Part shown: one piece after another, positions 7,727-60,390 of the stretch
Position numbering within the stretch: position 1 is the stretch's first letter
How the letters are laid out: each line of letters begins with the position of its first letter
Notes under the pieces: model-generated
The model's input: only the letters and a program-made list of their open reading frames with translations
Database searches by the model: none
What the model was told of the DNA's origin: nothing
Program-made: the position numbers and the translations under genes
Origin: Bryoerythrophyllum caledonicum
Taxonomy: Eukaryota > Streptophyta > Bryopsida > Pottiales > Pottiaceae
Direction: 5' to 3'
Assembly (NCBI GenBank): GCA_963971425.1
Contig: OZ020517.1
Span: 1,986,501 to 2,050,500 of the forward strand
DNA: 64,000 nt

Positions 7727-8377
7727 GAATACGTTCCCTTCTAGAATCCATGGTAAAAGAATAAGAGAGAGGAAAATTTCAAAGAATTGATCCATGATTC
7801 ATGTAGTAAGAAATGATTGGAATCTTTATAAATGGTACGGGGTTTGGCCTTTCGACTTGTCTTTGGGGCTTCACACCACGACCGGCCAAAGGCTTCAATA
7901 TGTATACTTTAATGTTTATTTTAGCAAAAAAGTTTGGGCCCTCGCCATTGTTTGGGCTGAAATTTTTGACGGACGGTCGCTCAACTTGGCCAAGTGTGAA
8001 GCGGCCCTCAAGGAAGGTGGGGGCCTTAAGGTAAGCCCCCCTATAACTAACAAAAACCCATAGCCAATGCCTGTAAATTAGGGTATATCCAACCTTCTTC
8101 CATCCCATTACCACCAACTGAGCTCCAAATGGAGGTTTGCTACTAGACAAGACCCTTACTTTTGGTCGTTGGTTATGAAGGGTATCTAGTGCTGGCCACC
8201 CACTAAACATGGCTGCACAGTTTGAAAATTCATAACTAATTTAGTTTTCATCCAAAACATCTGAAATCACTTGGGTTGGAAATAAATTATATTGGCTATC
8301 ACTGAAAAATAATAGTATAACAATCTCCTCTCTCCATATATGCACTCCTCAACTTGTCGGTTTTAGGGGGGATAACC
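7727..8377 (+). mobile_element. LINE copy 1, right piece, and unit-tail repeat
   Basis: Sequence resumes at GAATACGTTCCC exactly as in the uninterrupted copy at 63448. The same tail occurs at 43719-44136 and at 63448-64000. A frame on the minus strand (about 7779-8210) is open but not consistently so in the other copies. I cannot say whether all of this is LINE 3' sequence or a separate repeat. In all copies it lies directly upstream of the HET segment, or of the window end. Confidence 0.65.
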
Positions 8378-8381
8378 TTAA
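8378..8381. repeat. Left TTAA target duplication
   Basis: TTAA flanks the element here and at 10256-10259. The homologous position in unit B (44137-44140) has a single TTAA and no element, so this is a true empty/filled pair. Confidence 0.92.
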
Positions 8382-10255
8382 CCCCTAAGGTACCAAGGCA
8401 GTTTTACACCAAAAACACTTCAAAATCAGTGGATTCTAGTGCAATGAATAAAGAAGGTAACAAAAACTTTTATTTTTAGTTCTGGCCGTAGGATCTCAAT
8501 AAAGGCTTATTAAGTAATACATGTGTAAAATTTCATAAACTTTGACCGCACGGATTGAAAGATTATAGTGTTTGAAGTCAAGAAAATGGTTCATTTTCTT
8601 CCCTGCGTTTTGTGGATCAACAGACTTTGACTTCAGTAGGTGTCAAAAAATTTCGCTACACAAGGTCTAAATCTATTACCATCTTGTTAACCCCTAAAGG
8701 ACCACGACCTAATTCGCTCAAAAACCAGTCCAAAACTGCCACTGTCAAAAAGAGACATGAAAATCACATTTTAAAGTGAATTTCCAATTTTCAACCGTAA
8801 GATCTTAAAATAGACTTCCACATAAACATGCCATCAAATTTTGGTTGCGATCCACCGCACGGATTGATAGATTTTAGTGTTTAAAGTCAAAACACTGGTT
8901 CATTTTCATCCCTGTGTTGAGTAGATCAGCTGACTTTGACTTCATTTTGTATCAAATTTTTGCATTGTACAAGGTCTAAATCTTTTACCATTGTCTTAAG
9001 CATGATGTTATTTCCCAACACACCAATTTTTAGAGGTAAAAAAGGAGTGTAGCATATTCAAAACAAGTGTGCAAGGAGTGGAGGTTCAAAAATTGCCATT
9101 TCACGTTTTATTCTTTTGTGAACTACGTACGTAGTCAAATGATAATCCGAACGGTCAATTAAAAGGTTTTCACCATATATTGTTGTTGAAAAAAAAAAAG
9201 GTGAAAAATATGAAGATCTCTAGGTTTTATGTAGAAAAGATGAAGTTTTTTTCCCCCGTTGCCCGAGAATGAGTGAAAATGTTTGACTTGGAATAAAATG
9301 CCATTTTACACTAAAGACAAGATTTTTTTTTGAAAATTTTCAAATAAGGAAATACTCTTTACATGTGTGAAAAATCTCAATGTCAATAGAAACTTTTGTC
9401 AAAATTTTTGGAGGTGCCCGAAGTCCCACTTTTGGCTTTAAGTGGTACTAACTTTCAAACCACAAATCCAAAAAAAAATATATATATATCTCCACGAAGC
9501 TCTTATCAGATCCTATCTTGAAAAAAAAGTTGATTAAAAAAGGATTTTTTTTCGAATTGTAGGTACATGCCCAAAATCCAAAATGACCCCGGGGGGACTT
9601 TTGGTCCTTTAGGGGTTAAGCATGATGTTAGCTCCCTACACACCAATTTTTAGAGGTAGAGATAGGGTGTAGCATATTCAAAACAAGTGTGCAAGGAGTG
9701 GAGGCTCGAAATTTGTTAATTCACACTTTAATTTTTTTTGAACTTAATATGTTTTTGATTGATAATCCGAATGGTTAATAAGAAGGATTACATTACATAT
9801 TGTTGTGGAAAAAAAAAAAAGTGAAAAATATGAAGATCTCTAGGTTTTATGTGGAAAAGAAGAAGTTTTTTTGGTACCTTGCCCGACAATGAGTGACAAT
9901 GTGTGAAAATGTTTGACTCGGGTTGGTATGCTATTTTCCACTAAAGACAAGAACTTTTTTTTGACAACATGAAGGGAAATAATATTACTTGCGAGTGCTG
10001 AAAATCTCACTTTCAATAGAGCGTCCTATCAAAAGTTTTTGGAGGTGCCCGAGGTGCCCGCCCTCCCCATTTGAAATTAAAAACCCTATAACCTTTTCAT
10101 CAAATGTCCAATTTAGGAAAAAATTGTTTTCCCACTAAGGTCTTGGTAATGCCCTTCTATGGTAAGAATTTCAAAGATGAATGTTTGAAATTGACAGCAT
10201 AGGAACCTGACCGAATTTTCAAAAAGCCCGTTTTGGACACTTGGACCTTTAGGGG
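8382..10255 (+). mobile_element. piggyBac-like non-autonomous element in a TTAA site
   Basis: Ends are inverted repeats: left CCCCTAAGGTACCAAG, right CTTGGACCTTTAGGGG, flanked by TTAA on both sides. Unit B has the unoccupied site. TTAA duplication together with CCC-type ends is characteristic of the piggyBac superfamily (Kolobok and Sola3 also use TTAA). Without the nested insert at 8691-9615 it is about 945 bp and has no coding frame, so it must be mobilised in trans. Another copy lies at 37972-39574. Family landmarks are GGTGCCCGAGGTGCCCG and TTGCCCGACAATGAGTGAC. Confidence 0.88.
8691..9615 (+). mobile_element. Nested, diverged member of the TTAA family
   Basis: Starts CCCCTAAAGGACCACGACC after TTAA 8687-8690 and ends GGTCCTTTAGGGG before TTAA 9616-9619. 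The copy at 37972-39574 shows the uninterrupted site (TTAA at 38607-38610, reverse orientation). Internal sequence is related to its host element but clearly diverged, so it is a different subfamily about 925 bp long. Confidence 0.85.
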
Positions 10256-10259
10256 TTAA

Positions 10260-11661
10260 ATCACAGCCCAGAACTCCCAAAATGAAGACACTGGTCACCA
10301 ACTTCAGAGAATTGGAAGAGATGTAGCCACAGCAGCACGTCGTGAACCCGAAAAGCATGCACAGCATTCGAGGCTTCTTGTTGAAGTAGCGGTCTTCGCT
10401 CCTTCTGACGGAAGCACCCGGACGAGGTGGGAGCAGACAAGACTTCTAATGCACGGTGCAATAATGCTGGCAGTCTGTTTCCGATATGGGTGACCTAGTC
10501 GCCCTGAAAGTCATGCACGCTACAGTACCGTGAATGAGTATAAAAAATCGCACGTTGACTGAGAGTAGGGAAATCACCGGGCCCACATAGTGCCAAAACC
10601 AGCGTCGCCCAGACGCGCCGAACGTCATCTCTTCTTCCTTCTCTGTATGGACTCTGGAGGTCAGCCCGCTCCATAAGTTCCAGAGGAGCGCTTCGTGTGC
10701 CTACGCGCTCGGCTTGCCCTCTACCTTGCATCAGCTGCTCTTGCTGTCGGGTCGACCTTCTGTATCTTCGTCTTGGTGGTGCTGCTCGGAGGCAGGTTGG
10801 CAGTGGAGGTGCTGGACATCGGTCGCGTCCCTTTGTGGCACAAGTGAGTGTCTTCTGAATCGTGATGACATGTCGACAGCTTTGGGTGATGAGTGACCCT
10901 CTGATCTTTGTTGATTGAGGTATAATTGTAGTGAATTTTCACAGTGGGATTGTGTAGAACTCGGTGATTGTCATTGCGAGGAATGTCTCTTTTGCCTTGG
11001 AACAGTGAGCGCGGTGATTGTTTTAGGATTCGAATGGACGTTATTCTGCCATCTCAGTGAGGGTTGCTTGGATGGATCTGATATGCACGGCTCATATAGC
11101 AAGTCTTTGTATTTCAATACTTTGAATCTGCATACATGTTCGTTCTTAATGAGGGTTTGGACAAGTTCCGCATGTTCTTTGGCTGTTCTTTATCTCATCT
11201 TCCGAAATATCTTTGATAATATATTAATACCACTGAGCTGGGAATATGATCCTTCACTTATACGTGTTATCCAGATACAAGTGGCTAACTTGACTGTTAA
11301 GGCTGTGCGTGGTTTATCAGGAAGTCGTTCTAGAGCTTCAGGATACACTCCGTTTTGGACACACGAGGTTCTGCAGGACATTGCGAGCATTTCGCGCCAT
11401 TTTGAGGACTATCTGGGCCAGCTTTAGCTGCAGAGGATCTCCATCATGTACGAGATCTCAGTGTCAGTTTTCTGGTACGTCTGGCAGTTTCAATCCTATC
11501 TTTCAGCCGGAGGAAGCTGAGCACATGCATATATTCTTGTATGAACGTTTATTGGCATTGACCCTGGATAGGTCTGAAAGATCAGGGAAAGTGGAACAGG
11601 CGATCTTCGCTCTCACACCAAGCCTTCCACTGCTACTGTTGTTGCGCCTTTGACCGGCCAG
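10260..11661 (+). promoter_or_regulatory. 5' region of HET gene copy A
   Basis: Conserved with 44141-45432 in unit B but not as one open frame. A block at 10652-10846 keeps a hydrophobic frame (SAALAVGSTFCIFVLVVLLG) in both copies, ending at an AA/GTGAGT donor. The only upstream ATG in that frame (10648 area) meets the same TAA in both copies, so it is better read as a 5' leader exon than as a protein. The 170-residue frame at 10915-11427 is broken in unit B and is not annotated. Confidence 0.45.
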
Positions 11662-13890
11662 ATGTTCAGAGAGCCTGGAATACTGGAGATCCCAGCAGAA
11701 ACGGAAAGTAGTTTGGAATATATCTGCGAAGTATGCAGTCAGCTCGATTTCGATTCACTTGGCCTTAAACCTCGAGACTTTCCGTTGCCTCACCGTTCTT
11801 TGGAGAGTGTCGATTCGAAAATCTCGGAAATCAAAGGAAGGGCTGGGACATGTGTTATCTGTAAGGAGGTGTTCGGGTTTTATACTGAATGGATAACCCA
11901 AAACAAGGCTCTCTTAGGTTTCGAACGTTACCGGAAGGACGATATTGCTGAGTTTTGTATAGATATATTACAGTACAGACCGGATTCCTTTAAACGTAAC
12001 AAGTTGGTCCGAATGTTTGTTCAACTAGGAATAAAAATATCGCCTGATGTACGTGAAAATCATCGTCCTCTTTTTCAGTTTCACAAATGGATTCCACAGT
12101 CTGGAGAAGGGAATGGGAAAAGTGCAGTAGAGCAACCTTACAACGGTCGTGAGAGGGGGGTACTAGTAAACCAAACACAACTTCTCGATTGGAAGAAAGC
12201 TTGCGACAAAAACCATGGTAACTCCTGCAAGTCAAACTCTAATATCATGGATCACCTTGATTTCATTCGACTCATTGATGTACGGCCAAGGTGTGTTACA
12301 GTGAAAAAGGGTGTCGAGCTTGCGAACCTGGAGTATGCCGCCTTGAGCTATGTATGGGGTGGTAAGAACGCGCTGGGTCGGTGTAAAATGCCCAAGCTTA
12401 TGAGACGTGGAGTGAACCGTGAATGGGTCTTGCGGCAACCAGGGGCTCTGAAACCAGAGAAAGTACTTAGAACCATTGACGATGCCATGACGTTCGTAGG
12501 TGAAGGGCTTAAGTTAAAGTATCTTTGGGTTGATTGCCTCTGCATCTTGCAAGATACTAAAGCCGATCAAAAAATGTTCATTAATGCCATGGACTCCATT
12601 TATGCTTGTGCGTCGGTGACCATTGTTGCAGCAGCAGGAGACAATGCTAATGCAGGGCTTCCCGGTATCAACTCACTCTATGAAGGAGAACGCATGAAAC
12701 AGAACCCTCTTCAAATCCATAGAAAAGATAAGCCGACGGTATCAATAGTCCGAACACTTGACCTAGAGGGATCTGGTGAGATACTACCTTCTGATTATAA
12801 GTATGTTGGAGGATCTACATGGAACACAAGAGGTTGGACCTTCCAAGAGAAGATCTTTTCTCGAAGGACATTCATATTCACCAAGATGCAAGTATATTGG
12901 GAATGCCAAACAGCCACATGGTGTGAAGATAGCATGTGGGTGACCACGGAACCTTCATTTTATCGTCATTGCTTTAATGCAGATGTATTTCGCCTGCCCT
13001 GGAACAATTTAGATGAAGAAGAATTTGAGGATAGATATCGACAGCTGGTTGAGGAGTACACTGCGCGGAAGTTGACACAAGAGAGCGATGGTCTGGATGC
13101 ATTTACGGGTATTTTGAATGCCTTGGGAAGAGGTGATCCCGAACTAGAGTTCAAGTGGGGTCTACCGTTGTCTTTCCTAGCCAATGCTCTGAAGTGGCCC
13201 TGTCCTTTTCCTCTGGAAGCCAAAACCCTTGAGAGAAGAACGGAGAAACATCGCATTTCTAATGCCCGTAGTTGTCCATTTCCAAGCTGGTCATGGGTTG
13301 GATGGGTGGGGAAGGTACAAATGAATTCTTTAGTGAGAGGTCTAATGCTCGATTTGCATTTTTATTACCACGATGACATTGCGAAAAAACTTTTCAAGGT
13401 TGAGTGTAGTACAATGGGTCTTGATGGCATGATTCAACAAATTAGAAAAGACGGGATTGATGGGATCGATGTTCACATCAAACACAAAAAAGTTGAAAAA
13501 GCCTTGCGCAAGTCTGTTGCTTCAAATGTATTATTCTTTTGGAGCAGCGCCACAAGATTCCGAATCGAAGCTTCTCAACTTTTCGGCTACGTAGTTTGTC
13601 GTCGTGAATTGGCCAGGGGTGACCCCATTGAACTGTTCATTCAGAGTCCGTTGCATATGCCATTACTTCCTCCAGAGTCAACACATGTTGAATATGAGCT
13701 TGTTGTCATTGGGACAATTCGGGATAGGGTTACACCATTTAAAGAAGATGAAGATGAAGCTGAGTTAGCTGTGCTAGTATGCTCTGAAAATAAAAGTGAA
13801 GGCGTAGTATATCGGATGGGACTCGTCCCGATCCCTCTTAGAGAGTGGAAGAGATGTGAACCAGAATGGAAATTGATTTGTCTTGGCTGA
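11662..13890 (+). CDS. HET-domain (heterokaryon-incompatibility) protein, copy A
   Basis: A 742-residue intronless frame. The HET domain is recognised by its ordered motifs: YAALSYVWGG at about residues 225-235, YLWVDCLCILQ at about 286-297, a following IYACASVTIVAAAG block, and STWNTRGWTFQEK at about 386-398. The N-terminal part has CxxC-like pairs (ICEVC, CVICKE), as many fungal HET proteins do. In fungi HET domains trigger regulated cell death after non-self recognition. A plant role is inference. The start is the first ATG. The frame is open further upstream, but the codon homologous to copy B's start (45433) is AGG here. Neighbours are plant genes, so contamination is unlikely. HET genes have been reported in moss genomes as fungus-derived. 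Confidence 0.9.
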   Translation: MFREPGILEIPAETESSLEYICEVCSQLDFDSLGLKPRDFPLPHRSLESVDSKISEIKGRAGTCVICKEVFGFYTEWITQNKALLGFERYRKDDIAEFCIDILQYRPDSFKRNKLVRMFVQLGIKISPDVRENHRPLFQFHKWIPQSGEGNGKSAVEQPYNGRERGVLVNQTQLLDWKKACDKNHGNSCKSNSNIMDHLDFIRLIDVRPRCVTVKKGVELANLEYAALSYVWGGKNALGRCKMPKLMRRGVNREWVLRQPGALKPEKVLRTIDDAMTFVGEGLKLKYLWVDCLCILQDTKADQKMFINAMDSIYACASVTIVAAAGDNANAGLPGINSLYEGERMKQNPLQIHRKDKPTVSIVRTLDLEGSGEILPSDYKYVGGSTWNTRGWTFQEKIFSRRTFIFTKMQVYWECQTATWCEDSMWVTTEPSFYRHCFNADVFRLPWNNLDEEEFEDRYRQLVEEYTARKLTQESDGLDAFTGILNALGRGDPELEFKWGLPLSFLANALKWPCPFPLEAKTLERRTEKHRISNARSCPFPSWSWVGWVGKVQMNSLVRGLMLDLHFYYHDDIAKKLFKVECSTMGLDGMIQQIRKDGIDGIDVHIKHKKVEKALRKSVASNVLFFWSSATRFRIEASQLFGYVVCRRELARGDPIELFIQSPLHMPLLPPESTHVEYELVVIGTIRDRVTPFKEDEDEAELAVLVCSENKSEGVVYRMGLVPIPLREWKRCEPEWKLICLG

Positions 13891-14880
13891 CAAATACCCA
13901 ATTTAAGAAGTATCTATGCTTACGTGAGTTTTAGGGTTGCATGTGCTCCTACACTCATGTATTTTCCATAGTTTGTTGTGAATACATAGTTCAATTGTAC
14001 TTCTTTTGGCCTAGTTTGTTTCTTGAAAAATCAAGTGTCATCCTTGCAAGTATGATACTTCCCAACTAGCTTGTCCATTGTCAAAGGCTTGAATCTACAG
14101 GCTCTAACAAATGGCAAGTTGTGTAATAGTGAGGTACTAATGGATGAACATGAATGTTGTAGCAATTTGAGCAATCTAGAAGTGCAAGGAATCTTACATT
14201 GTTTTCAATAATAGAATTAGCTCCCAAATCTTCAATGTATATTCTATCCTTCATCTTCCAAAACGTCTTTGATATTTGAGGAATAGCATCGAGCTGGGGT
14301 CATGATTCCTCAGTTGTACCTTAACGAAATACAAGTGGGTATCTTGAAGGGTGGGATTGTGGGTGGAGAATTAGAAGGTTGTTTGGAGAGCTTTAAGTTA
14401 TTTTCATGTGCTTGACATGCGTAGATTTTGCAAGAAGTTGTCCTTTTGGGCCTCAAGGATGGTTTGTTTCAAGTTTCGCTGCAGAACACCCCTCGCATGC
14501 GTAGTTTACAAACTTCATGTAGAATTTGAAGTACCTTCACATGTAAATCCAAATCCTAAACTCTCTCTACACTACTTAGTAATTAATTAAACCACATTAC
14601 GCTACACACACTACAATACACTACACCAATGTACCTTAAACCCTTCTCCTCACCCTCACTCTCATCATGCAATAAATGCCACTCATCAATTCACATCATA
14701 CTCAAGCTTGACCTCTCTAGATGTTCTGGAGTTGCTGGATTAGTTGCATACATCTGTGGCCCGAGGATGGGCTGCTTTTGGAGGTTGATACCCATGGCAG
14801 AAGATACCCATGCGGAAGGTACAAATTAATGCCCGCTGGCCTGGCAGGATCGTGGAGATGAGTGCCGTGCGGAATTGGGC
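13891..14880. other. 3' flank of HET gene A with a diverged direct repeat of its 5' leader
   Basis: About 14240-14490 resembles 11188-11460 upstream of the gene (shared order: CTTCATCTTCC, GTCTTTGATA, GAGCTGGG, ATACAAGTGG, then a CGCTGCAGA block). Unit B holds an extra 380 bp here (about 47960-48345) which continues the same resemblance, so unit A has lost it. No gene is seen. Confidence 0.55.
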
Positions 14881-15149
14881 AGAATTAGGTCGCCCTCGCC
14901 ACTTAGGGCGGGTCAAAACCTGGAAGCGTCTATCTGCTCGCCCCACTCACCTGCCCGGCGCCCCTTTTCTGCTTGAGCCTCTCACCTCCGCCCAAACCCG
15001 CCTCTGCCCAATACCCTCATGACCGGCCGGGGCGAGCATTGGCGGTCGGAGGTGTAGAGTCGGGACGTCGACGTCGTCGGATTGGTTTGAACGGCCGTTG
15101 CAAAAAGTGTTGTGGAAAGGAGGCCACGCTCATCTGCTCGCAAGGGCGA

Positions 15150-15235
15150 CACCAGTCCTTGCCCTGACGCAAGGACACTTTTGCAACTACCCTGCATGTA
15201 GGGCAGGACACTTTTGCAACTACCCTGTATGTAGG
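15150..15235 (+). repeat. Short tandem duplication, unit A only
   Basis: The block AGGACACTTTTGCAACTACC is present twice about 34 bp apart. Unit B has the corresponding block once (about 49275). Confidence 0.7.
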
Positions 15236-16055
15236 TCGCCTTCCTTTGCATTCCTCATCCGTCTTCTCGTCCGCGCCGCCTTGCCTAAACCCGCCACCAT
15301 CTTCCACTCTTCTACATCCCGCAATCCCAGTCTAATCATGTCCTAAATAACTGCCCTTTCAGTTTTCGTGGTTTATGCATCCCAGCTGACCGCATTCTTG
15401 AAGAGGCCCAGAGGTCACATTCAAGCACATCACACAGTGACCCATCGACAAACCTGTAAGCTCTGCTCTCTATCATTGTGAGCAACCTCTCTACTGTACG
15501 TGAAGATCGTGTCATGTATGAGACTTCGATGTACTAAAGATATCTATATAGTTTGGCTACTGATTTCTGTTTGCTAATTGAAGTTTTTATTTGTGATTGG
15601 TGTCGAGCCTTTGCTGTAGGAGATTTATTGTGGTAGGATAACAACTATTTCCTGTGTCCATTACTCCGGTAGTTTTATAGGAATTTGAGGCTCAAACTAT
15701 ACTACATTTTCATGTTTACAAAGGACTGGATTGTCAAAGTTACAAGAAATTGCCAATTATGTGAACTGCTTCATGTGAATTTTAAGGCAGTTTCGATAAT
15801 ATCCCTGGTTTTCACGTATTTTCTAACCCAACCAACTTAACTATTAACGGTTATGGTGATGATGTCATCGGGTACATGTGTGAACGTAGCATTTTGCATC
15901 ACATTCATTTGTTGTTTGTATAATGACTTTGTATGAGTATGGTGTGGCTTTATGTTGGTTTGCTGTTACTCGTAAAGTGTGCGTTTTTGTTCCTCTTTCT
16001 GTTTCCATTTCCTCTCTGTGCAATAGCTTACATGTGATTGCACATCTTGTGATGC

Positions 16056-16860
16056 AGACGTGAATAGTATCGTGAAAGAGACAGCCAAAGGAAGGAGGAT
16101 TTGGATACAGAAGTGCCACGGCGGACCCTAAAATTCCATACCACAAGCTCTTCAAGCAGGGCGGGGTGTTCGGGAGGGCGTCCACAACGGACGAGAAGAT
16201 CACGGACGTAGATCCGGACTAGAGGGGTCACGTCACGTCACGGCAAGAGAAAGCCGTCGACAACAAGGCCAGGGTTTCCAAAGGCCACTCTGATCTCCCC
16301 GACGTCGACGACGCCAAATCGCAACCTGACACCTATGCCAAGGAAGCGAACAAGCGTTTGGATGCATTCGCCTCTGTCAAAGACAAAGAAGCAGACGACC
16401 TAGAAATAGCCATGGACAAGATGTCAGGATTGATTGATACCAAGAACTCATCCAGAGTAAGCTCACCTTGATCTCCCATCATGTCTCTTTGCATGTGACT
16501 GATCTCTGACATGTCAGACTACTTTGTTTTGCCAGAGTGTATTTTCACAGTAAACGCATGCGTAGTGGGAGAAGATAAGCACAATGAAACTCACAATTGG
16601 AGCGCAGCAACAGGAGAAGCCCAAAGTTGAGTGCACACTTAACGAATGTCGGAGATTTAAGAGAAAGGTCAGCACAACACAAACGTTGCCGCGGAGAAGG
16701 CGAAGGAGTCGATGCCCAATCTTCCGAATGTGGCGGAGAAGATCCTTATCTTGGATGCAGACAGGGATGACGACCTTAAGATTTTGGCGGATGGAGGGTC
16801 GACTTAGGGCGATCCTTTGAAGGCGAACATGAGAGTGATGACGGAAATGCTGGCGTAGAT
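16056..16860 (+). pseudogene. Decayed multi-exon gene, unrecognised (unit A)
   Basis: An exon-like stretch after TGATGCAG reads, in one frame, KIPYHKLFKQGGVFGRA, then KGHSDLPDVDDA, then KEANKRLDAFAS and MDKMSGLIDTKNSS, ending at a donor-like site near 16455. A second stretch at about 16690-16800 reads EKAKESMPNLPNVAEKILIL. The frame carries stops. The charged, Lys/Asp-rich composition looks like a real former plant protein, but I cannot name it. The unit B copy (50130-50935) differs in sequence and in which stops it has. Confidence 0.5.
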
Positions 16861-17302
16861 TTTCCGGATTGTATACAATCTCTTCTTAGTCAAAAAAAGT
16901 GAGAGTTTTGTATAGTTTTGGGGGCTTGTTCCATTGCAGGCTTGTTGAAAATTTTCATTTCATGAATATATTCATTACTTTGGCACTATTATGGAAGTCA
17001 AAATGAGATTTTTAAATGCAGTTTATGAAGAGCCTCCTGAATTAGAATTGCAAACTTGCTTGAAACTGCTACAATAATGAGAAACTCCATTTTGTTTTAA
17101 TGCACTCGTTTTGATTGACTGGTCGACATCCCGACTCTACACCTCCGACTCCCACTGCTCGCCCCAGCCAGGTTGGTATGGAGAAGAGGCGGGTATCAGG
17201 CGGAGGTGGGAGGTTCGAGTAGGAAAAGGGCGCCGAGCAAGTGAGTGGGGCGGGTAGACAAGCGCTCCCCCTGTTTCGACCCACCCTTAGTGGCGAGACC
17301 CA

Positions 17303-22283: not shown

Positions 22284-22358
22284 CGGCGGACAGTCGGGCG
22301 CCAAAGTTTTGGCGGCCAGTCGGGCGCCCGCCCCAGCGTTGGTGGACTGTCGGGCGAG
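22284..22358. promoter_or_regulatory. Head-to-head promoter between eS25 and nucleoside hydrolase (unit A)
   Basis: The start codons of eS25 (minus) and of the upstream frame of the hydrolase (plus) are only about 75 bp apart. The gap consists of tandem units of 26-29 bp with the core AGTCGGGCGCC and a GTTTTGG or GCGTTGG tail. Unit A has about two units plus a partial one. Unit B (56621-56723) has about one more. Confidence 0.6.
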
Positions 22359-23776: not shown

Positions 23777-23919
23777 GCAACTCGATGGGGAGGGCTTTGT
23801 GCGACGAGGAGGGTTTACTCTCATTTCGGGAGATTCGTTTACAAGAGTAAGTCTCTCCTGGCGTCACACTTGGAGGAGCTTCACACGCAAAAATCTTTGG
23901 GGAAGAAAAAATGTGAGAT

Positions 23920-29539: not shown

Positions 29540-29543
29540 TTAA

Positions 29544-44136: not shown

Positions 44137-44140
44137 TTAA
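44137..44140. other. Empty TTAA site of the element 8382-10255
   Basis: ATAACCTTAAATCAC here against ATAACCTTAA-element-TTAAATCAC in unit A. It shows the pre-insertion state. Confidence 0.92.
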
Positions 44141-47670: not shown

Positions 47671-48970
47671 TATATCGGATGGGACTCGTCCAGATCCCTC
47701 TTAGAGAGTGGAAGAGATGTGAACCAGAATGGAAATTGATTTGTCTTGGCTGAAAAATACCCAATCTGAGAAGTATGATACTTCTCAACGATCTTGTCCA
47801 TTGTCAAAGGCTTGAATCTACAGGCTCTAACAAATGGCAAGTTATGTGATAGTGAGATTTTGATGGATGAACATGAATGTTGTAACAATTTGAGCAATCT
47901 AGAAGTGTAACGAATCTTACATTGTTTTCAATGATAGAATTAGCTCCCAAATCTTCAATGTATATTTTCAATTTTGCATGTAATTACTTATGTTGTCACA
48001 AATAAGATATGTCAACATTTGAAACGTTGCTAATTGTTCAAGACATGTACTTATCTACAAAAGACATTATGTTGATTGTATCTTCTGTAAAATCTTTGTT
48101 GTAGCATGCAATTCAATTCTAACAACTTTGATAGTTGATGAGTGATGCTTTGACCTTTGTTTCAGGTGTTGTTTCTTAATCTCTAGGCATGATAGTGAAG
48201 TGTTGTGGGATTGTATGGAATATTATTTTTGAAAATGTGGTGCTAATTGTGAATATTGTAGTCCATGTCCCTTGGTGTGGAGCTGAAAGCATCTTCATTG
48301 TTTTGAGTTCAAATTAGTGTTATTAGGGTTGGGTCTTTGTCTATTCTATCCTTCATCTTGCAAAACGTCTTTGATATATGAAGAATAGCATCGAGTTGGG
48401 GTCATGATTCCTCAACTATACCTTAACCAAATACAAGTCGGTATCTTGAAGGGTGGGATTGTAGGTGGAGTATTAAAAGCTTGTTTGGAAAGCTTTAAGT
48501 AATTTTCAATTGTTTAAAATGTGTAGATTTTGCAAGAAATGGTCCTCAAGGATGGTTTGTTATAAGTTTCGCTGCAGAATACCCCCTCCATGCGTAGTTT
48601 ACAAACTTCTTGTAGAATTTAAAGTAGCTTCACATGTAAACCCTAATCCTAAACTCTTCCTACACTACTTAGTAATTAATTAAACCACATTACGCTACAC
48701 ACAATACAATACACTAATGTACCCTAAACCCTTCTCCTCACCTTCACTTTCATCACGCAATAAATGCCACCTATCTATTCACATCATACTCAAGTCTGAC
48801 CTCTCTAGATGTTCCCGAGTTGCTGGACTAGTTGTAGACATCTATGGCCCGAGGATGGGCTGCTTGCGGGGGCTGATACCCATGGGAGAGGATACCCAAG
48901 CGGAGGGTACGAGTTAATGCCCGTTGGACTGTCGGGCCCGCGGAGATGAGTGCACTGCGGAATTGGGCAG
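47671..48970. other. 3' flank of HET gene B with a direct repeat of its leader
   Basis: Counterpart of 13891-14880. About 48140-48560 resembles the 5' leader region (44740-45290) in the same orientation, and is more complete than in unit A. No gene seen. Confidence 0.55.
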
Positions 48971-48972
48971 AA

Positions 48973-51357: not shown

Positions 51358-54300
51358 CGGCTCATATATAGGAGGAAGGCCCGGCAAAACATGTAACATA
51401 CATATGTGATACCCATAGATACTTATGTGATACCCACAGATACTTATGTGATGCCCGTGGATATCATTTGACAAGGTCGCTAAATACTTATGATGCTAGT
51501 CAACATTCTTGCTAAATTTCATAATTCTTTTCAATTTTTCACAATATACTGGTAGCAACCATGCTTTTCTTGTAGCTTTTCAACTAAATTTAGCCGACAT
51601 TGGAAATGCTGTTGGAGAGGCTTTTCACTCCACCCAATTTTTTTAATAGTATGCACTTACTATCTCTTTATGCAAGGTTATACAATGCTACATATCCTTT
51701 AACCCCTAAAGGACAAATCTTTCTACAGAAACTTTATAGAATCTTTGAATTTTAACACCCATATTTAGCTACCATTTACATTCTAATTATATCACATGAT
51801 TTTTATTATACATTCAAAGAATTTTGAAAAAGAAAAATCATTTAAATGAATATCCATCATTAGAAAATCATGGTCAAAGTGAGTTGAAAAACAAAAAAAC
51901 CAAGCCCCTCGGGCTGGGGTTGACGTTTATAGGTTGAAGGACCAAGGCGTTTTAGAAGAATCTCTACTCCATTGATTAGAAATTGGCAAGATTATATTTT
52001 TGAGAATGCAATCGTAGGATCTTCTTATGAACTTATATGAGATGATCTTGGGAATAGTTTTTACATTTTGACCATACATATTGAACAATGATTGCAGTTG
52101 AAAATATAAAATTGTCCTCCAAATGGACACTTGGTCCTTTAGGGATTAAATAGCTTGCATTTACTGTCTAGTTATGCAAGGTTATATAATGCTACTTGAA
52201 TGGGGACTTTTTACCTTTAATATATTTAGAAATTAGAATTAGAAAATCACTTTGACAAATATGCTCAAGCTTTTGGTAGATAAAAAATAAAGAAGAATTT
52301 GTGGTGTAGTCTCCACCAAGATTTATCCTTTAAATGTGCAATGTCACGCTATATTATTTGAAATGGCTTTGAATTTTTTTACCTTTGAAGAGGATTTTAT
52401 TGAGAGCACAACCATCTAAGCTATTCAAAAAGGTTGATCATTGTCAATATAGCTGCTAAATATATTCATCAAGAGTAAAAGCTCATGGCATTTATAAATC
52501 ACATAGAATGTTTACACTAAACATCATATTCCATTTAGTTTAGTTCATTGAAGGAGTCAAAAACAAGCTCTAGGTCAATGTGAAAGACACCAATCTCTAA
52601 GAATGTTTTTGATATATAATATATTAATAAATATTTATACCCAATGACTAGTTTTGGAATTTCAACTCTTGATAAAAACTAGTAGTCCCGTACTGCTCTC
52701 TTAGTATGTCATTTGAGTTTATTGGGTTGTGGAGTCATAGTACACAAAGGTTACTCACTTTTGGGCAAAATCGAAGAATTCAATAAAAACCTCAAAAAAA
52801 ATTCTTCTACATTTTGGTTGATTGGAAAAAGTTAACTTGATTTACATGTGGGCCTAATTATTTTGTCATTGAATGAACTCCCTTCTACAAGGAAATTTTT
52901 AGGTACGCTAAATTTAAGCAGAGTGACATTGTGACACTTAAAATTTATAATTTTGAGTTCAAATATATCTTAAAGATGAACTAATTCATCAAAAAAATTG
53001 TACACCTGTAGAACCTTGTTAGCTTCTTCTACCAATCAACAAAATTGTAAAATAATTAATTCAATTTTTTATTGAACTCCTTGTTTTTAGAAATTATAGT
53101 GAATAGAACTAAATATTGATTACAAATGGGAAATTCCCCTTGGACCCTAGGATCTATTAGTAATGTCAATCATTACACCAAATTCAATAATGTAATTTTC
53201 CTTATTTATGTAGACTTAAAACAAATTTATTTGAAATATGGGACAATGTGACATCAAAAGTGGGGTACCTTAGTGTACTTATACCATGTTGTATACCAAA
53301 CTAACACTTTATTCATGCCAAATTCCTTTGGAGACCAAAATCAACAGTAAATCTTCATTAACTCAATGTTTATTGTTTTAATTAACACCAAAGTCACCAT
53401 TTAACATCAACTTCATAGTAAAACAATAGAGAAGAAGGAACCAATAATAAAATTTCCATATTTTCTGGGAGAAATACATATCCATGAATTTCTTACATTT
53501 GACCAAACATTAACCCTTTTATATCCACGTGGCCATACTAATATGGTTGTTAGGACATAAAAAATGGGCTTTGATGAGGATTTGTAGCAAAGTAGATTTT
53601 GGAATTAGATGAAGTTTACATTTAAAGTAATCCCGTACTTATCTATTGCAACAATTGTCATTCAATGCGGACTTCAAAGACACCTATTTAAAAAGGAGAG
53701 CATATACAAAGCTCATATAAAAAATATCATATTCATGTAATACATAGTGTACAAAAAAATTGTAGAGAATTTCTTACTTTGAGTTCGTGAAAGATGAAAA
53801 AAAATAATAGAAAGCCATGTCAAATTTTGAATCTCTTATAATGCTTGGAAAGCTTAGTTACATTTATTTATACTAAATGTAAGAGATGTTGTCTTTTTTG
53901 TATCTGTGATTATATGAATATAGCAATATTTTGAAAATCTTTTGAAGTTTGTTCTTCCTTTTGTTTATATGTTTTTCTATAGATGTATATTCTAAGGATG
54001 GCAACATGTATAGATTTATCCTCTAAAGAATAATGCAGTAATTTCTTTTGTTATTATAAATCTCTGTTACAACTATGCGATGTCTTGTTATGCAATGTCT
54101 TGTTAGAAGTGGAGATTTCGCAGCAAGGATTAGAAGCACATATGGTAAGTTGCATTTCAGTCACAAATTGAACGTGATGTGATACAAGCCTAAGTCATTG
54201 TTGTACCACAATGTTTTGTGCTCATCACATCACAACTCTCATGATCTAATACATGTTACACGAAACAATCAATGAAGACCATTTCAATGTATGGAGGATG

Positions 54301-55475
54301 TTTCAAAGTTTCAGTATGATCTTAAAAAATAAGCTGAAGTAAGAAGTTACTGAGAAAAGGCATTTTGAAAAGCTTCATACGTTTTACTGAATGACAGGTC
54401 CCTGCAATTTCAACTATATTCAGGTATTTTTGAAGTGATTTAAGAATATCCACACATGCTGACATTGTAAGTATAAGATTTCGTCTCAATACTAACATAC
54501 GGTACTTGACGTGATGTTAATTTCGAGCAAGTTTATGTGCCTATTACACAAAACTACAAGTGCTTGCAATAAAAAGGGTCCGCGGATCTAGAACATTTGA
54601 TTGCAAAATACATGAGCATTTGCTCCAATGTGTAGTTGATTTTCACATATAACCAGCTCATATAAAATACCATCATGTTTCACTCCTGCAGGACACAATG
54701 AACTCCGAATATTACCCTTGAATGTGGCGCTGCAGGAACAATCAGCAGACAGACTCTTCAAAACTTGATTTTTTGCGCACGCATCCATGACCTTTTACTG
54801 ACAAAGAGACCACTTCAAGTCTCAGTCCCTTGGGCCTGCACGACCATTATTGACAAAGATAACTTTTCATTCACGCGCCAACAGCAATGTCAGACGGTCA
54901 ACAATGATCTCACTCATATTACACTCAACAGGATGGCAACCAGCTCAGAAAACACCCAAAGAAACTAAAGAAGAAAGCGACAACATAACAAGAAAAGAAC
55001 TCACTGCTACAACTCATAACTTAAAAGTAACGCACAAGACAGGGTATGTATGACTTGACCCGATCATTAAACCCAATCAGAAAACGAAGACCATGATAGG
55101 AATTATCCCAGACGCAGCAAGTGAAAGGAGTAGGTACACAAGCATACAAAGGAGAGAAAGGTGTGGTGACCAGGTTCGTTGACATACTGCTACTACGACT
55201 AAAGATTGTACACATCAAAAGACATATCTAGACTAAAAAGGATTCAGAACACGGTGCGTATGAATTAGTCCGATGAGCAAAAGAAGGCCATGATATTGGT
55301 AACGAAAAATCCCAGATAAACTTGTTTACGAAGCACGTGAAAGGAGTGATGGCATCGATACACAAGCTCTCAGACTACAGGCCTATAAGCTACCCACGTC
55401 TGTCGCACTAGGCAAATTCTCAGAGAGATTTGCACGAGTGTGATGATGCTAGAAGTGCTCTAAAATCACATGAAC
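51358..55475. other. Long AT-rich non-coding block (unit B)
   Basis: Counterpart of 17303-21179, with no convincing gene. Differences from unit A are mostly point changes and small indels, plus the larger MITE at 51703 and a short extra phrase near 55129 (GTAGGTACACAAGCATACAA). Confidence 0.5.
51703..52145. mobile_element. TTAA-type MITE with intact left end (unit B)
   Basis: CCCCTAAAGGAC follows TTAA 51699-51702 and GGTCCTTTAGGGA precedes TTAA 52146-52149. About 230 bp next to the left end are absent from unit A, where the sequence jumps straight to AAAGGACCAAGG. Confidence 0.7.
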
Positions 55476-56620
55476 TTAAGTGTTGGTTGCCCTGGTGTAA
55501 ATCTGCTGGTTGGCGTGTGCAGCAACCAGTCTGATGGTACCCTTCGCCATCAATTCCTTGATGGCCTTCCTTGCCAAAGACCCGGTAATCTGCGTATTCA
55601 CACTCACCAATCAAACAAAAGTCTCAAAAAATATATTATACCTCACCAAAGCTCTCAAGCAGTCACACAGATTTTAGGAATGAGAAACGGAAATCAAAAT
55701 AAAAAGAGTGGGAGCTATCCAAAAATATCTACCCGCAGTTTTCAACATCAAGAGAAATAAAAAATCCATTTGGAAGTTAGATAAGGGCATCCAACAACAG
55801 AGAAATTTAACCAAAATACTTACACGCAGACGGTCCGACAACACGGACGAAGTCACCAACTTGAACTTGGGCACCTCTGACAGCAACTTGTCATAAGTCG
55901 CCTGGTCGAACATGACCATGTTCTTCACCTTCTCCTTTTGCTTTCCCTTGCTTCACTTCTGCAAACCCCATAACCATACCAACATTCAAAAACCCGTCTC
56001 CCAAACCAAAACAAAGCCCCGAAAACCAAACCACATTCAAATCCCATATTCGACCCAACCAAAAAAAAAACAAACAGACCCCGGGAACTCTAACCCTTAA
56101 ACGTCAGGAGGTCACATTATTCTACATATACAGTGTCTTATTTCAACATGATAAGGTTCACATATTGAAACGACCTTCAAATGCAAGATGTTACTTGAAC
56201 AATCTTCAATCCAAAGGAATACGTCTTGCTAAGCTTTCTCGCATTTTTTGTATTCTACAGAGTACGAAAGTGCCTGTATATTCAGTTCCCGACTAAAACC
56301 ACATCCCAAACCCCGTCTTCCACTTCCACAAACCAAATCAAACCACAGGACAGAGAAGACATTAACGAACTCGACTACTTGCCAAAACCCTAAAAACATT
56401 CAAACCCCGTCTCTCACACCAGACCAAACCCTAACGACGTCCAAAACCCCGACTCCGACACCAGGCCAAACCACAGAAACACATAGGATCCGCCACACGA
56501 ACTCACTTTCTTTTTCTGCTTGCCACCGCCGCCGCTCTTGGCGGGCTTGGTCGAAGCTGGCGGCAACGCAGTTGATGTGGTCGAAGCTGGCGGCAACGCG
56601 GACTTCTCCCACGTTGCCAT
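55476..56620 (-). pseudogene. RPS25: Ribosomal protein eS25, copy B, damaged
   Basis: Exon 1 is 56507-56620 ([13 protein letters not shown] to [11 protein letters not shown]), exon 2 is 55824-55958 with a proper TTTGCAG acceptor, exon 3 is 55476-55589 ending [10 protein letters not shown], the canonical eS25 C-terminus. The second codon of exon 2, Trp in eS25 proteins (KWSKGKQ) and in copy A, is TGA here, so the frame is stopped unless read through. Replacements KNMVMFD for NNMVLFD also occur. Exon 3 looks more ancestral than copy A's RATKS ending. Confidence 0.8.
56094..56297. mobile_element. TTAA-type MITE relic in eS25 intron 1 (unit B)
   Basis: Same truncated element as 21750-21955. Confidence 0.7.
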
Positions 56621-56723
56621 CTGCGTCGGCGGACTCTGGGGCGCCCGAGTGTTGGCAGACAGTCGGGCGCCCCAGTTTTGGCGGATAGTCGGGCGCCCCA
56701 ACGTTGGTGGACTGTCGGGCGAG
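56621..56723. promoter_or_regulatory. Head-to-head promoter between eS25 and hydrolase (unit B)
   Basis: Tandem 26-29 bp units with AGTCGGGCGCCCCA cores. There is about one unit more than in unit A. Confidence 0.6.
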
Positions 56724-56864
56724 ATGGAGATGAAGTGGACTACTGTACTGTGGTTGTTTCTGTTTGCCTTCTTAATTGTCGCGACCTGGAAAGTGACGGA
56801 TGGAACTGATGTGAGCTCCAATCTGAGTCTTGACTTTAGCTTGTGTGAGGAAAGGGAATGTTAA
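56724..56864 (+). CDS. Conserved upstream frame with a membrane/signal segment (unit B)
   Basis: Same 46-residue frame as 22359-22499 (MEMKWTTVLWLFLFAFLIVA), overlapping the hydrolase ATG at 56858. In this unit the frame is also open further upstream through the promoter repeats to about 56520. Confidence 0.4.
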   Translation: MEMKWTTVLWLFLFAFLIVATWKVTDGTDVSSNLSLDFSLCEEREC

Positions 56865-58140
56865 GGACTGTTGAGAGGGAGTTCGTTCTTTGGATTACGG
56901 GGTTTCTCATGTCGGCTGCGCATTTAGAAGCGAGCAGCGCTATGCTCTCGATACCTCCGAAACTCTCACCGTCTGAACAGGGGATTTATCAGAAGCTCGT
57001 TGATATTGCCGAAGAGCGCAAGAAGGCAGGGCAGCACCCTCGACCGATCGTGGTTATCACGGACGTGGGGAAAGACTACGACGATCTGGCTGCATTGGTT
57101 GTTCTCACGGAACTTCATCGCATCGGGCTTGTTACACTACACGCCGTAGTGGCCAATCTGATGCCAGCAGAGAGGAGGGCGCACCTCGCCAAGGCTGCGC
57201 TTCACTCCCTGGATGTGTGAGATGTTCCAGTAGCACGCGGCACGCCAGGGTCGCCCAAGGATTTTGAAGTATTTGACCACGAATTTGACAGAGCGGAGTT
57301 TAGCAGGGGTGAGTTTGAGGCGCTAGAGGATGGGCAAGATCTTCTACTTCGGATCTATCAAAACGCCAAGAAAAAAGGTGAGAAGTTGCACTTGCTTTGC
57401 TTGTCATCTCTGCAGGACATAGACGAATTTGCATCCAGGCACGAGCGTCTGGTCGCGGAATGGACAGCAGATGTTTACATGCAGGGTGGCAATCGTTTGT
57501 CAGAAAAGCACGAACTAGTGCCTGACATAAATGCTGCCAACTACCGCTTCGATATCGAAGCTGCTAAGCGATGGCATTCGTTCATACAAAAGCACAATAT
57601 CCCAAGCCACACCTACACCAAGAGTGCTGCTTTTTTTGTGCCCCTGACCTCCGAAGTGTTCAAGGAGCTGGAGGCGACGGGCCACTCCATCGGTGCGTAT
57701 CTGCGGAGGGTTCAGGTTGCGGAGGATCTCGCATTTTACGAGCGGGCCTGCGAAAGTGACCCAACGAAGCGGTTTGCACCCTTATGGACCAGAAATGGTT
57801 CCTCGCCAACAAGACCAATTATCATGTGTCTGAAGGAGACAATCCTCCCACAGGCGAGGAAATCATTCCATATCTCACAAAGACCGTGCTCTACGATGTG
57901 CATGCGGCTTTGGGCATTGCTGGCGATGATGTTGTGAGTAAGCTGGGTATGTTGTTGGAGAGGAAGGATCAAGCTACTGAAGAAGAGCCGAAATCGCAAG
58001 GCGAGGGGGCTATGGTGCATCATTATATCTATGACAATGGTTTGAGCCAAGCGGTTGCGGACGATATATCCCTGGCTATATCGTCTCTCCTTAAAGGTGC
58101 CCTTCTAAGAGGTTCACGTCAGTCGGCTCTTAGGATGTGA
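56858..58140 (+). pseudogene. Nucleoside hydrolase-like gene, copy B, broken
   Basis: Nearly the same as 22493-23776 and keeps the Asp motif and the GGNRLSEKH block. The frame is broken twice relative to copy A: a CGA to TGA change after HSLDV (about 57220) and a small deletion near 57780 that shifts the frame before the last 118 codons, which are otherwise intact. It is likely non-functional. Its close match to A outside these sites points to recent loss. Confidence 0.85.
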
Positions 58141-58299
58141 GCAACTCGATGGGGAGGGCTCTGTGCGACGAGGAGGGTTTGCTCTCATTTCGGGAGATTC
58201 GTTTACAAGAGTAAGTTTCTCCTGGCGTCACACTTGAAGGACCTTCACACGCAAAAATCTTTGGGGAAGAAAAAATGTGAGATCTTTTGTGGGAAGGGC

Positions 58300-58483
58300 C
58301 TGGAGGCGCGAGATGAGGGGCGAAACGCTGCCTGTGAGGGCGTTGTCGTTGACGTAGAAGCTTTGGAGTCCCGTGAGCTTGTAGAGAGATGGCGGGATGG
58401 TGCCGGTGAGGCGGTTGTCTCCCAAGTATATGTACAATAGCTGGTGCCCGATGTCGCCTAATGTTGATGGAATCGCATTTGAG
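58300..58483 (-). pseudogene. Leucine-rich-repeat fragment (unit B)
   Basis: The minus strand reads RFSNAIPSTLGDIGHQLLYI, YLGDNRLTGTIPPSLYKLTG, LQSFYVNDNALTGSVSPLIS: nearly three LRRs in one frame, longer than in unit A. No start or other domain is seen. Confidence 0.78.
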
Positions 58484-59149
58484 AATCTGCATCAGGGTTA
58501 GGGTTCGTTAGGGTTTTCCAATGAAGAGAAACGAGGCTAATATTGAGTGCCGTTTGTGCTATCTGTTTGTGCTATCTGTTTGTGATATCAACAAGCGTGT
58601 GAGGTTGAAATGTACGTCGACTTTGCATCTCGAGCTCGTGCTAAAACAACGAATGCAGAAGGAATGAGCTTGGAGCATTTGGAGCGACTGGGAGGGAAAC
58701 TTGAGTGGGTTGCATATTCATCCTTGATTATTTTTGAAAATGCTAAATTTGTAAGTTTTGAGCTGCAATGAGACATCCTTCTTTTTTGAGTTCTCGTTAT
58801 AAGGTTCTCAGGTTCATTCTTTAGGATGTAGATATAGGGTTAGCTTTGTCGGTTCTGACTTCGTCTCTTTTCTTGAAACAGCAAGAACGATTTATCACTG
58901 GACGATTTGGCCTCAGCTACACGTCACGAAGTAAGTTCTGTCCAATCTTTACTTCAAGTTGTCATTAGAATATTTTTTTCTTCAACGGCTCTCTGCTCAG
59001 GACACGACTTCTCGTTTGTTTATTGAAGCATGTTGTGGTGTTACCAGGAGCAATTCTGGTGTTTGTTGGCGATTTTAGTGTTCGTCTCTAATTTATTCAG
59101 CTATATTAATATTTTATTGAGAATTGCAAGTACATAGAATTGGTGGAAC

Positions 59150-60218
59150 TCTTTAAAGCAGACTGACCCTAAGTTTTTAAATGTCTCGAATTGTGCAGGA
59201 AAGCGACATCATATGAGTTCGGACAAAAAGAGACCCCCTCCTACTCACAACCTTGAAGGAGAGATTTTTGGAATTTGACAGGTTCTAGGGTCGTGCCATC
59301 TCACGGCACTGGTTCTCCTGTAACCCTGTTCTGGTCCATAGTTCCGTGACCAGAGAGGCAAACTGGCAAGCCGAGACATGGACGCAGCCGGGATGGATAC
59401 GTTGTGATCCGAGGGGTTCGGGCTGTGATTTGGTTGCTATTTTTTATGTTGCGGCTGCCTACGCAAGGTGCGAATTTCGGAGGTTGATTTATGCTTGATG
59501 TTTGTCAATGCATGTCGCATTTGTTATAAAATGTGGAGCTACTTCCCAGGTGTGGTGTTTGTTATGATGTATTGACGAGAGGCTTGTTTCAGAGGAAGTT
59601 GTTAAGCGGGATGGTTAGGGAGTATGAGATTGGAGAGAGCCGGGATGCTTGGAGGATCAGATATAAGATTGGCTCTGCAAGCGCATGCATTTGACAGACA
59701 GGTTGGTAAGGCGCGGATTACAGGTTTCAAGCTCCGACTTTGGCATTTCTGAATTGTGATCTTTGCGTGCTTAAATTCTATAAGATTTAAGGGTTTGAGT
59801 CTGTGATTGTATTCAACCTTTTAGTCTGTTCTTGTTGTTGTGCAATTGGCTTATAGCTAGGGCGTTATCTCCTTTGGAATATTGCAAAATCGACCTCCCG
59901 AGCCTCTTTTGCACAAGCCAAAGACCTCTTATTTTGGAAACAGTTGTAACGCATTACTTTCACGTGAAAGAGAAGCTTGCTCTTGAGGTTCCTGTGAAGA
60001 AGGTAAGCCTTTTTCAAGTCGTACGTTATTTTGGCAACTTCGGGCCTCCCCTGTTTGTGTATAATGGATTCAAATAGTAATATGTTACGTTGTGTTTCGA
60101 GGCAATCTAGAAAGGCTCCCTTTGGCATTTCTCTTGATTTTATGCATCTGGCCTTAAGAATAGTACACCAGATCTTGTATTTTGTTTCCTTTGACATGTA
60201 AAGGTATAGAGAGCCTCA
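59150..60218. other. Block present in unit B only
   Basis: Unit A passes directly from GGTGGAACTCTTTTA to TCAGTAAGCAAGGG, while unit B has about 1.07 kb between. No terminal repeats, target duplication or gene are recognised. A deletion in A is as likely as an insertion in B. Confidence 0.5.
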
Positions 60219-60390
60219 TCAGTAAGCAAGGGTGTTGTTAGAGGAATTGAAATCCCTGGAACAGTATATGAACCTCTGTCTTACGGTTCCTAAGTCTGCC
60301 AGGTCATTTAGGTTGTTTATACCTGGAATTGCAATGTGCTTACTACATTCCAGGAGACAAAGGCGGTCAGCGGCTAAATGCAAACATACT

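What the first reader, a model, noticed from the sequence alone, without database searches (positions are those of the whole stretch)
7960..60390. Amplified segment carrying HET, eS25 and nucleoside hydrolase genes
7960-24930 and 43719-60390 are two same-orientation copies of one segment of about 16 kb. They hold in the same order the HET leader and gene, an inverted-repeat element, a long AT-rich block, eS25, a head-to-head nucleoside hydrolase and an LRR fragment. Indels are reciprocal, and each copy has its own broken parts. The copies are separated by unrelated host genes, so this is dispersed segmental duplication of a fungal-like cargo together with a host ribosomal gene.
Basis: partly seen in the sequence, partly recalled or inferred. 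Interest (0 to 1): 0.85.

Follow-up and report, generated by a model that had tools for sequence, protein, structure and literature searches.

The report
Moss HET gene cluster with passengers
A moss-like plant chromosome carries a cluster of repeatedly copied fungal-type recognition genes that stay open and vary, while neighbouring pieces copied along with them, including a beheaded ribosomal gene, decay.

Summary
Window 7965-24910 and 43722-60388 are collinear, same-orientation copies. The reading "one dispersed cargo segment" holds only in part. The window lies on a 32-Mb contig of a 437-Mb plant genome. The nine long HET copies found all sit within 0.5 Mb of that contig, so this is a local cluster. 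Three copies found carry the eS25 and nucleoside hydrolase block. A and B are mosaics: dS is 0.139 in HET but 0.024 in the hydrolase. The eS25 block matches a gene on contig C7 but lacks that gene's 5' end, and each cluster copy has a further lesion, so they look like pseudogenes. The hydrolase is HopQ1/XopQ-like; copy A is the only intact one found. HET frames are open in nine of nine long copies, with dN/dS near or above 1 in variable regions and signs of gene conversion. Moss regions with HET plus HopQ1-like genes are already described in Physcomitrium patens (PMC7911284 passage, citing Sun et al. 2020, not seen). I file this as a new member of a known kind.

The parts
7965..24910 (+). Copy A of the long segment
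   Evidence: self-BLAST
43722..60388 (+). Copy B of the long segment
62119..64000 (+). Start of the next HET unit (C), matching 1-1353 and 7727-8276; it continues beyond the window
11578..13890 (+). HET gene of copy A, open frame 770 aa including the HET domain (first in-frame Met is residue 29 of the frame)
45427..47670 (+). HET gene of copy B, open frame 747 aa, C-terminal end differs from the other copies
14895..17298 (.). Inverted-repeat transposon-like element in A (arms about 165-180 bp); related elements on several other contigs
48983..51352 (.). Same inverted-repeat element in B
17660..22219 (.). Block in A matching C7:8340527-8344742 (AT-rich stretch plus eS25); left edge approximate, matches tested from 17700
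51934..56562. Same block in B (right edge projected)
21192..22219 (-). eS25 pseudogene of A: exon matches 21192-21314 and 21531-21674 and part of an exon at 22158-22219; start-codon exon of the C7 gene not carried over, one splice acceptor lost
55488..56562 (-). eS25 pseudogene of B: same 5' truncation plus an in-frame TGA
22493..23776 (+). HopQ1/XopQ-like nucleoside hydrolase of A, 427 aa, the only intact copy found in the genome
56858..58137 (+). Same gene in B, broken (in A's frame one TGA and one 1-bp deletion)
23867..24112 (-). LRR fragment
   Evidence: PF00560
24247..24736 (.). Stretch matching C10:23824816-23825304 (86%); neighbouring 23931-24248 matches C6:13888572-13888920 (88%)
26567..28573 (-). 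Host TAF5-type gene (TFIID_NTD2 plus WD40), with a second uninterrupted copy at C6:32008289-32010292
31640..32539 (-). Host PAP_fibrillin gene (plastid family)
   Evidence: 23.5 bits, cut-off 22
34398..35441 (+). Part of a host RINT1/TIP1 gene; open frames 33444-34202 (no Pfam match) and 36208-36570 (not searched) may belong to it; 34606-36800 has a 99% copy at C4:2091196-2093391
41157..43724 (+). PhoPQ_related (PF10142) multi-exon gene; matches stop at profile position 280 of 367, just where the HET unit begins; four copies found genome-wide, all in this cluster
1354..7726 (.). 6.4-kb insertion in unit A with terminal inverted repeats of about 30 bp, absent from unit C

Best explanation
This is part of a local birth-and-death gene cluster of about 0.5 Mb on one chromosome of a plant, most likely a moss. 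Its core is a HET-domain gene of fungal type. Units grew by repeated local duplication, probably unequal crossing-over between HET units, and were reshuffled by gene conversion and deletions (duplication and exchange shown by sequence; crossing-over inferred). HET genes are kept open and vary most on both sides of a conserved HET core, as expected of recognition proteins in immunity or non-self recognition (selection shown in part; role inferred). The rest looks like passenger DNA: a transposon-like element, a stretch shared with contig C7 that brought a 5'-truncated eS25, a truncated PhoPQ_related gene and bits matching C6 and C10. Passengers were multiplied with the HET units and decay. One of them, the HopQ1/XopQ-like hydrolase, was found intact only in copy A.
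For: Locality: 9 of 9 long HET matches found (82% identity or more) lie in C4:1.757-2.261 Mb, seven on the plus strand and two on the minus strand. Open frames of 746-793 aa in 9 of 9; 8 of the 9 were read as letters. Without selection a tree of 0.693 substitutions per site over about 2,310 bases with a stop-gain fraction of 0.0445 would give roughly 71 stops (my arithmetic). dN/dS 1.44 (95% 1.05-2.00) for residues 41-200 and 0.79 for the core in six close copies; upstream noncoding DNA of five units differs by 3.7% on average. Exchange: A and E are 100% identical over 11401-12200 where the other units are 77-95%. Mosaic: HET dS(A,B) 0.139 against hydrolase 0.024. Passengers: the C7 eS25 gene has a start-codon exon, cluster copies A and B match it only from inside the next exon; further lesions are acceptor loss in A, TGA in B, TAA in the third copy. 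Hydrolase intact in 1 of 3 long copies. Tandem logic: units C and E carry HET followed by the 36818/PhoPQ block that in the window lies beyond the host genes, and a 99% copy of window 34606-36800 lies between units D and E.
Against: Pairwise dN/dS is below 1 for older pairs (A-G 0.82), and over all eight copies no region is clearly above 1 (residues 41-200: 1.21, 95% 0.94-1.54). Region borders were chosen after seeing the profile. Synonymous divergence is also raised in the variable regions, so old retained alleles or conversion from distant paralogues could explain part of it. No expression data. Unit A's HET frame has no early Met, so its first exon is unknown. About 0.2 Mb of the cluster could not be read. 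A surviving intact hydrolase may mean that it is not a mere passenger.
Confidence: 0.68

Rival explanations
1. One reading: one 16-kb unit of fungal-like cargo plus a host gene was copied as a whole to dispersed places, as a mobile element would do.
For: Two collinear copies in the window with shared order; a third copy at about 2062.5-2086.6 kb with an 8.1-kb insertion.
Against: No long HET copy at 80% or more was found outside C4:1.757-2.261 Mb; the only other long match to the eS25 part is the C7 locus, where the hydrolase query found nothing. Divergence is uneven along the segment. Outer ends, read by eye, show no shared terminal repeats or target-site duplications.
Confidence: 0.1
2. The HET copies are neutral relics multiplied by recombination, with no function.
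For: dN/dS close to 1 overall (pooled 1.15 in six copies); transposons and pseudogenes all around.
Against: Open frames in 9 of 9 long copies despite roughly 71 stops expected on the tree of eight; coding parts diverge more than upstream noncoding DNA (3.7%); a conserved HET core. The frames were picked as the longest ones, so openness counts only because they span nearly the whole homologous length.
Confidence: 0.15
3. Assembly artefact: haplotypes or repeats wrongly placed in series, or fungal contamination.
For: One stretch, 34606-36800, is 99% identical to a second place in the cluster; 200 N lie somewhere in the stretch read at 1740-1940 kb.
Against: Copies differ by dS 0.02 to 0.14 with private lesions, there are no N in the window, plant genes lie between them on the same 32-Mb contig, and eS25 copies keep introns shared with C7.
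Confidence: 0.05

Closest known systems
Fungi-derived genomic regions FR1 and FR2 of Physcomitrium patens (Sun et al. 2020, New Phytol. 228:1169-1175; not held, not seen; known to me from one passage of the review PMC7911284)
   Same: A moss nuclear region with HET-domain genes, a HopQ1-like protein gene and mobile elements together.
   Different: Here a cluster of about nine HET units with variable flanks, a ribosomal pseudogene matching another contig, and a PhoPQ_related gene. Whether their third family (CF) has a counterpart here, whether their HET genes vary in the same way, and whether the regions are orthologous could not be tested.
Moss HopQ1-like proteins, HLP (PMC6019455, abstract and passages seen)
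   Same: Plant-encoded relative of HopQ1/XopQ, far from classical nucleoside hydrolases: NCBIfam XopQ 94.8 bits against Pfam IU_nuc_hydro 18.5 bits.
   Different: One intact and two broken long copies plus fragments in one cluster; the passages I saw do not speak of copy number.
Fungal HET-domain incompatibility genes (PF06985); HET is described as TIR-like in PMC4986451 and PMC9153377 (passages)
   Same: Full HET domain, profile 1-146.
   Different: In a plant chromosome; the Pfam scan at E 0.001 found no other domain in the two window proteins.
Plant immune-receptor (NLR) clusters (recalled)
   Same: Local duplication, gene conversion, intact and decayed members, hypervariable recognition parts.
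   Different: The amplified gene is HET, not NLR.

Membership tests
Moss fungi-derived region (FR1/FR2 type) | HET-domain genes present | tested here: met
   11 of 74 PF06985 matches genome-wide lie in C4:1.757-2.261 Mb
Moss fungi-derived region (FR1/FR2 type) | HopQ1-like gene in the same region | tested here: met
   for the family; all 8 genome matches lie on C4 between 1.96 and 2.09 Mb
Moss fungi-derived region (FR1/FR2 type) | Conserved fungal gene CF | not testable with these tools
   Sequence of CF not available; paper not held
Moss fungi-derived region (FR1/FR2 type) | Mobile elements in the region | tested here: met
Moss fungi-derived region (FR1/FR2 type) | Fungal origin by phylogeny | not testable with these tools
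   No fungal or plant protein collection here; origin rests on literature
HopQ1-like protein (HLP) | Closer to XopQ/HopQ1 than to classical nucleoside hydrolases | tested here: met
   XopQ model E 4.7e-27 (94.8 bits); three PDB chains below 1e-10: 7jlu, named XopQ, and 4kl0 and 4p5f, which I recall as XopQ but which the file names otherwise; IU_nuc_hydro 18.5 bits, under the 34.2 cut-off
HopQ1-like protein (HLP) | Modified calcium-binding aspartate motif | tested here: inconclusive
   one search aligns the query's aspartate stretch with that of 4kl0; the classical motif was recalled, not compared
XopQ equivalog (NF041355) | Score above the curated cut-off of 500 bits | tested here: not met
   94.8 bits, so it is a relative, not XopQ itself
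HET family PF06985 | Score above gathering cut-off over the whole profile | tested here: met
   97.6 and 88.2 bits against 22.5, profile 1-146
Transposon-borne gene cargo | Common ends with terminal repeats or target-site duplication around the whole segment | tested here: not met
   read by eye: outer ends at 7965 and 24910 show none; B and C' share a left flank because the PhoPQ block was duplicated too
Birth-and-death tandem cluster | Local copies, intact and decayed members, exchange between copies | tested here: met
Birth-and-death tandem cluster | Diversifying selection | tested here: inconclusive
   residues 41-200 1.44 (1.05-2.00) in six copies, 1.21 (0.94-1.54) in eight

The most novel reading that the evidence does not exclude
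HET (a TIR-like domain that may make a nucleotide signal) and the HopQ1-like hydrolase (which may destroy such signals) form a linked signal-maker and signal-eraser pair that mosses took over from fungi as one non-self recognition module, kept together in at least two mosses.
Probability: 0.1. Interest if true: 0.85.

Novelty: new member of a known kind. Interest (0 to 1): 0.45.

Why it matters
It shows in one place how a plant keeps and multiplies genes of fungal type: the recognition-type gene stays open and varies while most of what was copied with it dies. It gives a resolved case of a ribosomal gene stretch shared between contigs as DNA, introns included, with its start left behind. The single intact HopQ1-like gene beside a HET array makes the idea of a joint HET and hydrolase function directly testable in mosses.

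Tried and rejected
Transposon capture of the whole segment: I looked by eye for shared ends, terminal repeats and target-site duplications at 7965 and 24910 and saw none. The inverted-repeat element is a separate insertion shared by the units A, B, D, I and in part E, with relatives on other contigs.

Working eS25 gene driven head-to-head with the hydrolase: rejected, since homology to the C7 gene ends inside its second exon and A lost the next splice acceptor. This is read from sequence only; no transcripts.

Empty site for the C7 block: C4:1979.2-1980.6 kb has the end of the inverted-repeat element about 550 bp from the hydrolase's upstream DNA without the C7 block, but part of that gap matches a repeat also present at 7831-7955, so the arrangement may come from deletion as well. 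Inconclusive.

Structure prediction of HET (mean pLDDT 25.9, two aligned sequences) and of the hydrolase (37.9, single sequence) gave no usable model; no fold search was run.

One search did not list the window's own match, so absences in that call mean nothing; only its positive matches are used. Genome searches score only the best candidates (40 of more than 2,600), so copy numbers are numbers found.

Literature: the listings of searches showed no paper on a HET cluster with hypervariable regions in a moss; the library lacks most subscription papers, among them Sun et al. 2020. A look into the Sphagnum genome paper PMC9946827 failed through a query error and was not repeated.
Full report
What is there. 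Self-comparison of the window gives two collinear same-strand copies, A 7965-24910 and B 43722-60388, in pieces of 89-96% identity, and the beginning of a further unit at 62119. The window is C4:1986501-2050500 of a 437.4-Mb genome in 894 contigs, and C4 is 32.35 Mb long. A PAP_fibrillin gene, eS25 genes with introns and the pair HET plus HopQ1-like gene (compare PMC7911284, passage) point to a moss; this is inference.

How many copies. A 2.9-kb HET query finds nine long copies at 82% identity or more, all in C4:1.757-2.261 Mb, seven plus and two minus, one of them in two pieces. Shorter or weaker matches lie on C2, C8, C10 and C15 and in other places on C4. By contrast three copies were found of the eS25 and hydrolase block: A, B and one at about 2081-2087 kb (D), the last with insertions; fragments of the hydrolase lie at 1961.6 and 1980.5 kb. 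Searches score only the best candidates, so these are numbers found. I read as letters the window, 1740-1940, 2050-2080 and 2105-2125 kb, 5.9 kb around unit H at 2228.6-2234.5 kb and 0.6 kb at 1979.5 kb; the rest of the cluster, about 0.2 Mb, only through searches.

How the units are built. Names: F 1758 kb, G 1773, A, B, C 2051, D 2062, E 2107, H 2230 (minus), I 2257 (minus). C and E run from HET into the block at 36818-37416 and the PhoPQ_related gene, which in the window lie beyond the host genes and before HET of B. C' is a cut unit between C and D. E holds 14236-15391 and then jumps to 36864. A 99% copy of window 34606-36800 lies between D and E. The simplest account is a tandem unit that once ran HET, inverted-repeat element, eS25/hydrolase block, host genes, PhoPQ_related, next HET, with later deletions; this is inference, and the reverse (compact units into which the rest was inserted) is not excluded.

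Mosaic history. In 400-bp steps, A against B is 91-96% upstream of the HET frame, 85-96% within it, 85-92% in the inverted-repeat element and 90-99% from 17.4 to 24 kb. HET dS(A,B) is 0.139, dS(A,E) 0.047; hydrolase dS(A,B) is 0.024 and dN 0.016 on 427 codons. A and E are identical over 11401-12200. So HET parts have been exchanged between units independently of the rest.

HET genes. All nine long copies have open frames of 746-793 aa around the domain. For eight read as letters, a nucleotide tree has length 0.693 and the stop-gain fraction is 0.0445, hence roughly 71 stops expected without selection. The frames were chosen as the longest, so this counts only because they span nearly the whole homologous length; B's end is altered. 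The pooled dN/dS of six close copies is 1.15; single pairs reach 1.52 (C-H and E-H, bootstrap share at or below 1: 0.005 and 0.004), others are lower, A-G 0.82. By region in six copies: residues 1-40 1.24 (0.52-12.65), 41-200 1.44 (1.05-2.00), core 201-452 0.79 (0.48-1.40), 453-745 1.24 (0.94-1.65), last 25 residues 0.33; in eight copies 1.77, 1.21, 0.78, 0.95 and 0.52, none with a 95% interval wholly above 1. Borders were set after seeing the profile. Upstream noncoding DNA of five units differs by 3.7% on average. I read this as a recognition-type protein with a conserved domain and variable flanks; the role is inferred.

The ribosomal gene. PF03297 finds six loci: C2, C10, C7 and three in the cluster. 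C7:8340527-8344742 matches window 17700-22219 at 87-95% in pieces, introns included, so the two share DNA, not a spliced copy. Read from sequence, the C7 gene has a start-codon exon, an intron, and an exon that begins the body of the protein. Cluster copies A and B match C7 only from inside that exon; the start-codon exon and the first intron were not carried over, nor presumably the promoter. Further lesions: A lost the acceptor of the next exon with a deletion of about 60 bp, B has a TGA and D a TAA. That C7 is the source and the cluster the target is inferred from this truncation. The hydrolase is beside eS25 because the fragment lies there: the hydrolase's own upstream DNA (from about 22259) recurs at 1980.1 kb, where the eS25 searches found nothing.

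The hydrolase. It scores 94.8 bits with NCBIfam XopQ (cut-off 500). In the PDB file three chains lie below 1e-10: 7jlu, named XopQ, and 4kl0 and 4p5f, which I recall as XopQ. Pfam IU_nuc_hydro gives 18.5 bits, under its cut-off. PMC6019455 (abstract and passages) reports such proteins in the mosses Physcomitrella, Pohlia and Ceratodon, inside a fungal clade, and calls the evidence for transfer insufficient for a definite conclusion. PMC9963460 (passages) states that HopQ1 alters purine metabolism and that the Xanthomonas relative hydrolyses 2',3'-cAMP. PMC4986451 (passages) relates HET to TIR domains and reports HET in bryophytes. From these follows my boldest reading, a signal-making and signal-destroying pair; nothing here tests it, and decay of 2 of 3 long hydrolase copies speaks against a need for one hydrolase per HET unit.

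Known or new. The review PMC7911284 (passage) says that Sun et al. 2020 found two fungi-derived regions in Physcomitrium patens with HET genes, a HopQ1-like gene and a conserved fungal gene, plus mobile elements. PMC11228847 (one passage) mentions a truncated HET in P. patens, citing the same work. So the kind is known. The contigs here (C1 reaches past 60 Mb) do not fit P. patens as I recall it. As far as the passages I saw tell, the size and variation of the HET cluster, the mosaic history and the beheaded ribosomal passenger are not in them; the original paper was not seen.

Limits.

Noticed in passing
Genome C1:6.96-7.53 Mb and C2:38.27-38.40 Mb: Two more HET clusters: 25 and 5 of the 74 PF06985 matches in the genome; the hydrolase and PhoPQ_related searches gave no match there.
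   Followed up: partly
41157-43724; C4:2057.9-2059.5, 2115.4-2117.0, 2237.8-2239.4 kb: PhoPQ_related gene in four copies, all within the cluster, none of 19 matches going beyond profile position 280 of 367, one with a TGA: perhaps one truncated ancestor, with no full copy found elsewhere.
   Followed up: partly
26567-28573: TAF5-type gene has a second uninterrupted copy on C6, 95% identical as protein and 90% as DNA over 2.6 kb: another copy between contigs, like eS25.
   Followed up: partly
34606-36800 and C4:2091196-2093391: Part of the RINT1 gene and its 3' flank is 99% identical between the two places, closer than the other compared parts of the cluster: a recent copy or conversion.
   Followed up: no
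C4:2073356 onward (L031): Third long copy (D) holds an insertion of about 8.1 kb inside the eS25 flank with a 9-bp overlap of the two ends (GGTATGTAT), which looks like a target-site duplication; only its left end was read.
   Followed up: partly
1354-7726: 6.4-kb insertion with terminal inverted repeats of about 30 bp; flanks suggest a 4-bp duplication (GAAT).
   Followed up: partly
39354-39471 and 40279-40573: Tandem repeats of 56, 6, 32 and 30 bp close together upstream of the PhoPQ_related gene.
   Followed up: no
16223-16468: The inverted-repeat element carries an open stretch that looks like an exon ending at a splice donor; origin unknown.
   Followed up: no
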